Below, one piece after another: positions 47,734-64,000 of a stretch of DNA of 64,000 nt. The stretch is from Pontibacter sp. Tf4 (lineage in GTDB: Bacteria; Bacteroidota; Bacteroidia; Cytophagales; Hymenobacteraceae): the NCBI RefSeq assembly GCF_014212495.1, contig NZ_JACKZC010000003.1, positions 186,001 through 250,000 on the forward strand, in the 5' to 3' direction. Numbering within the stretch: the stretch's first letter is position 1; each line of letters begins with the position of its first letter. The notes below the pieces were generated by a model, which searched no databases, was not told where the DNA came from, and saw only the letters and a program-made list of their open reading frames with translations. The translations under genes and the position numbers were made by a program.

Positions 47734-47766
47734 AAAGCCCTGTTCTGAAAAGAGCAGGGCTTTTTT
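47734..47766 (+). terminator. Terminator of the phosphorylase-like gene
   Basis: A 13-bp stem AAAGCCCTGTTCT / AGAGCAGGGCTTT with one G-T pair and loop GAAA, followed by TTT. Confidence 0.9.
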
Positions 47767-47854
47767 GTCTGAACCAGGATTTACTGGATTAAAGGATTTG
47801 GAGGATTAGAGTGTTGCTTAGTTAGAAGCCATAGTTTCATAGTTTCTGTTTGTC
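47767..47854. repeat. Short dispersed repeat (GGATT-rich)
   Basis: The text TCTGAACCAGGATTTACTGG, continuing with ATTAAAGGATTTGG, is related to the arms of the inverted-repeat element at 59282-59570 (TCTGAACCGGGATTAAGGGA) and to GATTAAAGGGATTT near 19607 and 63339. It is a solo or degenerate copy of that family. Confidence 0.6.
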
Positions 47855-48250
47855 AAACCACCCCTACCCCTCCTTATCCAAGGAGGGGAACTCTGACATT
47901 GCTATAGTTTAACATACATTGCTATAGTTACAGACCAAGGGCGGACAGGTCGCGACCTGTCCCTACGGAATTACAACCACGAAAAAAACGATCTGCTATA
48001 ACCAAGAGACATTAAGCAAACTATAGTTAAATAAGTTACTATCGAATGTGATTTCAGTCTTTGGGTTGAGCGCCTTTGACTTGTTGCGGTGCCGCAGGCA
48101 ATCCGAGCGCAGCGAGGATAGCAAGAAGGCAGCAGCGCGATACCCGAAGACGGGGCCTCCCGGCCCGGGAGGGAGCCAAAGAAACTATAAAACGGTAGGC
48201 CCTTAGAGCTCCCAGGAATAAAAGTAGCTATAGAACAATGACTTGTTTCC
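47855..48250. repeat. Multi-hairpin dispersed repeat, copy 1
   Basis: This block matches 63522-64000 in the same orientation with many shared long stretches. It contains, in order: CCCCTCCTT-ATCC-AAGGAGGGG (47867-47888), the 20-bp palindrome GGACAGGTCGCGACCTGTCC (47943-47962), a conserved block of about 140 bp starting near 48043 that reads TTGGGTTGAGCGCCTTTGAC and later GCAAGAAGGCAGCAGCGCGA, and the palindrome CCTCCCGG-C-CCGGGAGG (48156-48172). Between these, spacing differs between copies. No reliable gene is in it. Downstream (48300-48385) are text pieces like CTCGACTTAGCTCGGGATGA and CTGGCTACACTCGAAATGAC that look like further intergenic repeats. Confidence 0.85.
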
Positions 48251-48418
48251 AGCAGTAAGCAAAGTAAACTATAGAAAGAAAGCCTATCAACTATAAGGCG
48301 TGTAAGATCCCTCGACTTAGCTCGGGATGACAAGTAGAAAACTATAGTCTAAAATAGATTTCTGGCTACACTCGAAATGACAAAGGAATATAAGTTGGAC
48401 GATCTCTCAACAACCAAA

Positions 48419-63521: not shown

Positions 63522-64000
63522 TCCAACCACCCCTACCCCTCCTTATCCAAGGAGGGGAATTCTGATATTGATGTGTTGACAGCTATAGTTTTATAGTTGC
63601 TGCTTTAACACCCCTATAGTCCCCTCAAGGGGACAATCTCTGTCTTTGCGATAGTTGAAGCTATAGTACTATAGTTTTAGTTTTAGGCTGAGAATAGGAC
63701 AGGTCGCGACCTGTCCTTACAGAATTACGACTACGAGTAACACCGATCTGCCCTAACCAAGAGCGAGAAGGAAACTATAGCAAAGGCAAAAGCTATCGAA
63801 TGTGCTATCAGTCTTTGGGTTGAGCGCCTTTGACTTGTTGCGGTGCCGATAGGCAATCCGACGCAGGAGGATAGCAAGAAGGCAGCAGCGCGATGCCCGA
63901 AGACGGGGCCTCCCGGCCCGGGAGGGAGCTAACCAAACTATAGCACTATAGGTTAGTAGAGCTCCCATGATTACAAGTGGCTATGAAAGAAAAGGCTTGT
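63522..64000. repeat. Multi-hairpin dispersed repeat, copy 2 (cut by window end)
   Basis: Same parts and orientation as 47855-48250: CCCCTCCTT-ATCC-AAGGAGGGG (63536-63557), the palindrome GGACAGGTCGCGACCTGTCC (63697-63716), the conserved block from about 63798 (TTGGGTTGAGCGCCTTTGAC, GCAAGAAGGCAGCAGCGCGA) and CCTCCCGG-C-CCGGGAGG (63909-63925). An extra hairpin GTCCCCTCAAGGGGAC (63619-63634) is inserted relative to copy 1. Copies of CTATAG cluster between 63580 and 63680. No gene is supported. Confidence 0.85.

What the first reader, a model, noticed from the sequence alone, without database searches (positions are those of the whole stretch)
47855..48250. Multi-hairpin repeat of about 400 bp, present twice 15.7 kb apart
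Copies at 47855-48250 and 63522-64000 keep the same order of palindromes and a block of about 140 bp with high identity, while spacers and insertions vary. It is non-coding and mosaic, with hairpins that can each be separate units. It may be a composite of REP-like elements, a structured RNA or a recombination site. The two direct copies flank about 15 kb that includes the ebo operon, so they could also mediate its loss or duplication.
Basis: seen in the sequence. Interest (0 to 1): 0.62.

Follow-up and report, generated by a model that had tools for sequence, protein, structure and literature searches.

The report
Hundred-copy folded intergenic DNA repeat
The two matching stretches belong to a seemingly undescribed family of more than one hundred copies per genome that fold into one precise knotted shape, sit between genes at places shared by related species, and appear to keep exchanging sequence with each other.

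Summary
The ~140-bp block is the core of an intergenic repeat: 116 full-length copies in this Pontibacter genome, copies in 43 of 50 Pontibacter genomes and in 4 of 6 genera of the family. No Rfam match covers the core; no phage, plasmid or (exact pattern) IMG/VR match.

The core folds, on one strand, into a long stem, a three-way junction and a hairpin whose loop makes a pseudoknot. Covariation is strong within and between genera; a pseudoknot pair, left out of the model, ranks 6th of 7,306 column pairs.

Places are shared: 40 cross-species pairs have both flanks homologous in the same orientation, 5 flipped; yet such copies are no more alike than random ones, and distant variable sites within the genome are unlinked. 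So copies overwrite each other: concerted evolution.

Best reading: a non-autonomous REP/ERIC/BOX-like repeat, selected as a folded + strand and homogenised by ectopic conversion. RNA or single-stranded DNA is undecided. A Y1 (RAYT) link is strong inside Pontibacter but fails in two genomes of other genera.

The parts
47767..48382 (+). whole composite repeat unit, copy 1 (module train around the core)
   Evidence: extent of homology among 30 own-genome loci and reading of the unit; ends approximate
47734..47766 (+). terminator-like hairpin and T-run of the upstream gene, directly before the unit
   Evidence: sequence; 29 of 61 own-genome copies with a co-directional upstream gene have such a hairpin within 140 bp of its stop
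47867..47888 (+). upstream hairpin module P (CCCCTCCTTATCCAAGGAGGGG)
47943..47962 (+). upstream hairpin module Q, TCGCGA type; two other types (TTTA, GCGCAGC) occupy this place in other copies
48054..48179 (+). conserved folded core, copy 1, inner type A
   Evidence: R1 match 128.1 bits, positions 1-127
48057..48066 (+). P1 stem, 5' side; pairs with 48142-48151
48070..48073 (+). P1b (GCGC), separated from P1 by a UGA/GAU internal loop; pairs with 48135-48138
   Evidence: invariant in A1, so without covariation there, varied in other genera
48090..48100 (+). P3 hairpin with GCA triloop
48101..48119 (+). P4 hairpin, tandem G-A and GCA triloop
48142..48151 (+). P1 stem, 3' side
48153..48166 (+). 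P5 hairpin; loop 48158-48161
   Evidence: covariation and consensus fold; the single-sequence energy fold of this copy prefers another hairpin here
48171..48174 (+). pseudoknot partner of the P5 loop
   Evidence: covariation in A1; two of the four pairs rank 6 and 30 of 7,306 although not modelled
48204..48218 (+). downstream module T (AGAGCTCCCAGGA)
48304..48381 (+). downstream hairpin modules U (..GGGATGAC, ..GAAATGAC types)
63536..63557 (+). hairpin module P of copy 2
63609..63634 (+). hairpin module R of copy 2 (CACCCCTATAGTCCCCTCAAGGGGAC)
63697..63716 (+). hairpin module Q of copy 2
63808..63932 (+). conserved folded core, copy 2
   Evidence: R1 match 125.8 bits, positions 1-127
63957..63971 (+). 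module T of copy 2; the unit runs on past the window end
   Evidence: L026

Best explanation
It is a high-copy, non-autonomous intergenic repeat of the same broad kind as REP/BIME, ERIC and BOX elements, with an unusually elaborate fold. Shown: the + strand of a ~127-nt core is under selection for one fold (P1 with a tandem G-A internal loop, three-way junction P2/P3/P4, hairpin P5 whose loop pairs 3' of it); many copies stand at the same place and in the same orientation in different species, mostly behind gene ends; copies within a genome resemble each other more than their positional counterparts elsewhere; and variable sites within the genome assort freely. Inferred: places are inherited vertically; copies are occasionally gained through a trans-acting machinery that recognises the folded single strand, survive in safe places behind terminators, and are afterwards homogenised by ectopic gene conversion, while structure is kept because only foldable copies are recognised. 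Which machinery, and whether the folded molecule is single-stranded DNA or RNA, is not shown.
For: 116 full-length copies in the own genome, 129 in the complete genome G054. Covariation: 20 of 43 pairs with double changes in Pontibacter, 88.4% of cells paired against 79.0% shuffled; 33 of 39 pairs, 91.2% against 68.4%, in 34 sequences of three other genera (aligned to the model, so leaning to it). Among 7,306 column pairs of 77 sequences the top five are stem pairs, 26 of the top 40 are; pseudoknot pairs rank 6 and 30. One strand: G-U against A-C cells 76:20, 204:20, 70:3 in three alignments; fold z-scores + strand -2.6 (RNA) and -2.8/-3.2 (DNA), - strand -1.2 and -0.5/-0.7. Shared places and concerted evolution: 40 same-orientation pairs against 5 flipped; positional counterparts more alike than other cross-genome copies in only 16 (core), 14 (upstream), 17 (downstream) of 40; within-genome copies more alike than counterparts in 33, 38, 34 of 40. 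Shuffling: 63 biallelic sites in 78 copies, mean r2 0.012-0.024 beyond 50 bp (1/n = 0.013), but 0.64-1 inside the paired P2/P4 block; most module types independent, 26 of the 27 copies that could be fully typed (of 78) unique, four-gamete fraction 1.0 beyond 60 columns. Placement: of 201 typed copies 87 convergent, 63 tandem co-oriented, 34 tandem anti, 17 divergent. Empty counterparts: P. populi L179 against own L273, P. mangrovi L170 against isolate 903 L115.
Against: No autonomous relative, no target-site duplication and no sharp ends were found. None of 50 sampled Y1-transposase loci holds a core. No significant replichore strand bias in G054 (75 against 54, Fisher p 0.079). Conversion was not observed; it is read from allele patterns, and recurrent mutation could add to the loss of linkage (37 of 63 sites are transitions); core type and module V are weakly associated (p 0.04). 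Fold: RNAalifold on A1 left to itself finds P1, P1b, P3, part of P4 and P5 but not P2; P2 comes from my reading, pairs poorly at some columns (e.g. 16 of 27 unpaired at 27-89), and the number of pair types in A1 does not exceed shuffles (36 against 38.7). Of the four pseudoknot pairs the two outer ones do not rank (209 at best and 2,217), and the energy folds of both window copies prefer another hairpin in the P5 region (pseudoknots are not modelled there). Loops lean to DNA, wobble pairs to RNA. Copies at shared places are also what a maintained host function would give.
Confidence: 0.5

Rival explanations
1. Specific form of the above: an oversized REP, recognised as top-strand single-stranded DNA and spread in trans by a Y1 (REP-associated tyrosine, RAYT) transposase.
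For: Loops are of the type that caps DNA hairpins: 193 GNA triloops, 72 GNYA and 28 GNRA tetraloops of 337 parsed loops. TnpA-REP acts on single-stranded REP of one strand (passages of PMC8266576).
Against: Outside Pontibacter G073 has 60 copies and no Y1 match, and G206 has 22 copies and is not among the genomes with a Y1 match; two further genera (g18, g20) have Y1 but no core match; in Pontibacter 5 genomes with fewer than 3 copies do have Y1. None of 50 sampled Y1 loci carries a core; the one own-genome Y1 locus read by eye (L075) is flanked by a different hairpin repeat. The Pontibacter correlation is not corrected for phylogeny. REPs are 20-40 bp and terminate in a GTAG or CGTC tag (abstract start and passages of PMC3733652).
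Confidence: 0.2
2. A functional structured non-coding RNA (or 3'-UTR RNA domain) encoded in >100 copies and kept uniform like tRNA or rRNA genes; a protein or small molecule binds it.
For: Fold with three-way junction and pseudoknot, strand-specific G-U pairs, shared positions, mild co-orientation with genes (63 against 34 tandem, p 0.004).
Against: 29 of 61 copies with a co-directional upstream gene lie behind a terminator-like hairpin of that gene; 7 of 50 Pontibacter genomes have no match and 6 have 1-3, so it is dispensable; tetraloops show no purine preference at position 3 (72 GNYA, 28 GNRA), unlike the GNRA loops of known RNAs (recalled). No promoter scan was run.
Confidence: 0.25
3. 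A chromosomal DNA site (BIME-like gyrase/nucleoid site, recombination hot spot or replication-restart signal) whose extruded strand structure is used in place; not mobile.
For: Intergenic, hairpin-rich, often behind terminators, rare in divergent promoters; extensive exchange between copies.
Against: Single-strand asymmetry of the fold is unexpected for a cruciform; no significant replichore bias; empty sites exist.
Confidence: 0.15
4. Shared positions are repeated independent insertion into the same few safe sites, not inheritance; uniformity within genomes then means recent bursts.
For: Strong placement preference; positional counterparts are no more alike than other copies. Sharing does not fall neatly by species: P. 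burrus 1 of 9, P. vulgaris 2 of 4; for this I raised the odds slightly (0.10 to 0.12).
Against: Same orientation 40 against 5. Copies sharing a place with one of 79 sampled own-genome copies: 11 of 36 in P. populi, fetidus and burrus (same 7-mer dialect), 3 of 6 in isolate 903, 8 of 49 in mucosus, chinhatensis, ruber, vulgaris and mangrovi, 0 of 26 in flavimaris, litorisediminis, anaerobius and pamirensis (relatedness itself was not measured). A burst leaves linked haplotypes, but linkage is absent.
Confidence: 0.12

Closest known systems
REP / BIME / REPIN with RAYT (TnpA-REP)
   Same: dispersed, intergenic, palindromic, one strand distinguished, mosaic arrays, non-autonomous
   Different: core is ~127 nt with three-way junction and pseudoknot, no constant GTAG/CGTC tag seen, no RAYT neighbour in 50 sampled loci, copies in two genomes without a Y1 match
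BOX elements of pneumococcus (PMC3049150, search listing only)
   Same: modular, about a hundred copies, intergenic, mosaic of sub-modules (details recalled)
   Different: host, modules and fold differ as far as recalled; no sequence comparison made
ERIC/IRU repeats of enterobacteria (recalled)
   Same: ~127 bp, intergenic, imperfect palindrome, shared places between species (recalled)
   Different: not a single long hairpin; different phylum; not compared by sequence
HEARO and other multi-copy structured RNAs; TnpB/IscB guide RNAs (recalled)
   Same: multi-copy structured RNA with pseudoknot, most copies without a protein gene
   Different: no Rfam match over the core; no TnpB-type match in the own genome

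Membership tests
REP (RAYT-associated) | short (20-40 bp) single palindrome | tested here: not met
   127-nt branched core, covariation
REP (RAYT-associated) | GTAG or CGTC tag at one foot | tested here: inconclusive
   upstream word varies (GTAG, GCAG, GGAG before CTATCGAA) in the flanks listed; no constant tag seen by eye, no statistic made
REP (RAYT-associated) | copies flank a RAYT gene | tested here: not met
   0 of 50 sampled Y1 loci (L059-L108) hold a core at E<=0.1; all 22 hits of the call lie in the ten other loci. The remaining Y1 matches were not fetched
REP (RAYT-associated) | co-occurs with RAYT genes | tested here: inconclusive
   38 of 38 Pontibacter genomes with >=3 copies have a Y1 match; G073 and G206 have copies without one
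Any Rfam family | covariance-model match over the core | tested here: not met
   0 in the window at gathering score; with E up to 5 one sub-threshold match (Pseudomon-1, 22.1 of 50 bits) at 48292-48391 on the - strand, outside the core; with E up to 1 in ten relatives' loci one sub-threshold GcvB match outside the core
TnpB-type guide RNA | TnpB-like gene in the genome | tested here: not met
   PF07282: 0 matches in the own genome with 116 copies; 3 of 39 genomes overall
Retron / group II intron / DGR element | reverse transcriptase in the genome | tested here: not met
   PF00078: 0 matches and 0 candidates in the own genome
ERIC | sequence match to the ERIC consensus | not tested
   family recalled only
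BOX | boxA-boxB-boxC sequence | not tested
   only a paper listing seen
Integron attC | core-site pair, integrase, array of cassettes | not tested
   GTTGAGC resembles GTTRRRY in Pontibacter (recalled motif); not kept in all other genera; copies are dispersed; no integrase search made

The most novel reading that the evidence does not exclude
A new class of multi-copy folded nucleic acid, shared by at least four genera of one bacterial family, whose copies act as one freely recombining population inside each genome: the folded + strand (as single-stranded DNA or a transcript) is a currency by which copies at fixed, inherited addresses continually overwrite each other, with base-paired blocks exchanged as units and a dedicated unknown protein reading the pseudoknotted fold.
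Probability: 0.3. Interest if true: 0.85.

Novelty: new variant of a known kind. Interest (0 to 1): 0.62.

Why it matters
Bacterial repeats are usually thought of as short hairpins that spread and decay. Here a complex, pseudoknotted fold is conserved across four genera at up to about 130 copies per genome (129 in G054, 127 in G068), and the copies show, together, shared positions and loss of positional identity. That would make ectopic gene conversion in bacteria measurable from a single genome, gives a natural test of whether a folded repeat is selected as DNA or RNA, and offers a target for finding the protein that reads it.

Tried and rejected
Protein-coding origin: 21 of 220 cores lie inside a crude ORF of 120 aa or more (4 of 79 own-genome, 14 of 114, 3 of 27), and copies differ by short indels (by eye); no formal coding test was made. 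Known RNA family: no match over the core. Phage or plasmid carriage: no match (exact pattern in IMG/VR; blastn with the own core only). RAYT flank: not found. RT- or TnpB-borne mobility in the own genome: no such gene. Autonomous element between inverted pairs 3.4 kb apart in g19: in four loci the enclosed main frame (785-787 aa) and its neighbours are shared in place and do not look like a transposase by eye; its family was not searched. Replichore bias: not significant. The Thermoleophilaceae pattern hit (L169) is not confirmed by the model: 79 of the 80 loci given have a hit, L169 has none; only 80 of the 109 pattern loci were given to that call. L169 was nevertheless one of the 220 pattern-found cores; it is in none of the 40 pairs.

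Literature: searches found no account of such a repeat in Pontibacter (one search listed one unrelated paper). This is not proof of absence, because the library lacks most subscription papers.

Full report
What was checked. The window is G000:C17:186001-250000 of a 4.45-Mb genome in 23 contigs. The two copies exist as described: cores at 48054-48179 and 63808-63932, both +.

Copy number and range. A blastn search with the 151-bp core gave 40 scored hits at 91-100% identity out of 123 candidates. A covariance model (R1, 127 positions) found 116 full-length matches among 150 scored candidates, and 129 of 150 in the complete genome G054. 43 of 50 Pontibacter genomes have it, 33 of them with 10 or more copies. 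In the family 69 of 204 genomes and 4 of 6 genera have it; g18 and g20 have none. In the order 29 of 390 genomes do, 28 of them in this family; the exception is one weak hit in G034, E 1.4e-6. No match in IMG/VR (exact pattern), plasmids or phages (blastn with the own core).

Fold. On 27 Pontibacter sequences (A1) the fold I proposed has 88.4% of cells paired against 79.0% in shuffles and 38.7-43.8% when slid, with 108 double-changed cells against 41; the number of pair types does not exceed shuffles (36 against 38.7). RNAalifold alone recovers 26 pairs: P1, P1b, P3, part of P4 and P5, not P2. On 34 sequences from three other genera, aligned to the model, the fold is 91.2% paired against 68.4%, 33 of 39 pairs with double changes, P2 included. 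On 77 sequences, also aligned to the model, an APC-corrected mutual-information ranking of 7,306 column pairs puts stem pairs in all top five and 26 of the top 40 places; two pseudoknot pairs, which the model did not contain, rank 6 and 30, the other two do not rank (209 at best and 2,217). The P5 loop and its 3' partner change together (CCC/GGG, CGC/GCG, UGC/GCA, CUC/GAG in A1; GCC/GGC in another genus). Energy folds of the two window copies show P1-P4 but prefer another hairpin in place of P5.

DNA or RNA. The fold belongs to one strand: G-U cells outnumber A-C cells 76:20, 204:20 and 70:3 in three alignments, and fold energies stand out from shuffles mainly on the + strand, for RNA and DNA parameters alike. 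Of 337 parsed caps of P3 and P4, 193 are GNA triloops, 72 GNYA and 28 GNRA tetraloops (185 of 220 cores parsed, 29 P4 loops unparsed). RNA tetraloops of this kind are nearly always GNRA, and GNA and GNNA caps are the stable ones of DNA (recalled; a reference to GNA minihairpins and the statement that the GAA triloop is ultra-stable were seen in passages of PMC11101458). Copies are not independent (79 of 220 from one genome). I take this as a lean to single-stranded DNA, not a proof; conserved wobble pairs at two P1 positions fit RNA at least as well.

Mosaic and shuffling. Own-genome copies share an ordered train of modules over about 650-700 bp. Each place holds one of a few words: Q hairpin of three types, inner core of three types (A 40, B 31, C 7 of 78). 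Q type and core type are independent (p 0.24, n 75), as are core and P5 variant (p 0.87, n 64) and Q and V (p 0.70, n 75); core and V are weakly associated (p 0.04, n 78); 27 of 78 copies could be typed at all five places and 26 of these differ. Linkage between 63 biallelic sites falls to 1/n beyond 50 bp apart from the paired P2/P4 block, where r2 is 0.64-1. So base-paired blocks travel whole while the rest assorts. Recurrent mutation may contribute (37 of 63 sites are transitions), but multi-base types such as Q are unlikely to arise that way.

Places. 220 pattern-found cores (219 Pontibacter and the unconfirmed L169) were compared by flanking proteins. 40 pairs from different species share both flanks in the same orientation; 5 share them flipped. 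6 of 16 P. populi and 4 of 11 P. fetidus copies share a place with one of the 79 sampled own-genome copies, but only 1 of 9 P. burrus copies. Counterparts are more alike than other cross-genome copies in only 16 of 40 cores, 14 of 40 upstream and 17 of 40 downstream flanks, while within-genome copies are more alike than counterparts in 33, 38 and 34 of 40. This is the pattern of concerted evolution. A tblastn look at neighbouring gene pairs gave 100 rows with a core in the same orientation, 10 without and 4 flipped (own-genome loci partly held twice), so empty sites exist. Copies are rare between divergent genes (17 of 201 typed; 2 of 77 in the own genome) and often follow a terminator-like hairpin (29 of 61).

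Partner. In 50 Pontibacter genomes the number of copies follows the number of Y1_Tnp matches (Spearman 0.67), in 25 genomes not that of RVT_1 or TnpB; the own genome has no RVT_1 and no TnpB match. Against a RAYT partner: G073 with 60 copies has no Y1 match and G206 with 22 copies is not among the genomes with one; none of 50 sampled Y1 loci has a core. So RAYT is a candidate, not a finding.

Verdict. A large, structurally elaborate family of intergenic repeats, REP/ERIC/BOX-like in behaviour; not a REP by the tests made, while ERIC and BOX were not tested by sequence. The observation deserves follow-up mainly for the combination of an elaborate selected fold, shared fixed addresses and free exchange between copies.

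Noticed in passing
whole window; L109-L217: A 7-mer is over-represented genome-wide with a one-base species dialect: AACTATA/TATAGTT 14-21 times the composition expectation in the window, P. populi, fetidus and burrus; AAGTATA/TATACTT 11-32 times in mucosus, chinhatensis, ruber, flavimaris, litorisediminis and vulgaris; both about 10 times in isolate 903; in neither top list for pamirensis and diazotrophicus (cores masked with 600 bp on each side). In the window it is denser between genes (6.2 per kb) than in them (2.4 per kb). It resembles DNA-uptake-sequence dialects (PMC3630211, listing and start of abstract) or HIP1-type iterated words (recalled) and may deserve its own study.
   Followed up: partly
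L295, L300, L307, L308, L318-L327: In other genera of the family, and in G041, the core sometimes comes as two inverted copies a few hundred bases or 1-3.5 kb apart.
   Followed up: partly
L032, L044, L046, L047, L039; also own-genome L008, L010, L015: A small hairpin insert (about 20 bp, GGGGTAGGGGCCCTC-like) sits at different places inside or beside the repeat in several species (by eye).
   Followed up: no
L075 (G000:C17:161394): An own-genome Y1 (RAYT-like) gene is flanked by a different hairpin repeat, GCACGAGCTACAAGCTCGCGCCAGC-like (by eye).
   Followed up: partly
L087 against own-genome L022: In G017 the gene gap where the own genome has a repeat unit holds instead a Y1 (RAYT-like) frame between inverted hairpins.
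   Followed up: no
G054: 38 of the 129 matches are 141-146 nt long and score lower (54.7-92.1 bits), a second class of cores not looked into (counted by eye).
   Followed up: no
G002: A Pontibacter genome with only 2 cores has 14 reverse-transcriptase domain matches, seven of them with identical score and 444-aa frame.
   Followed up: no
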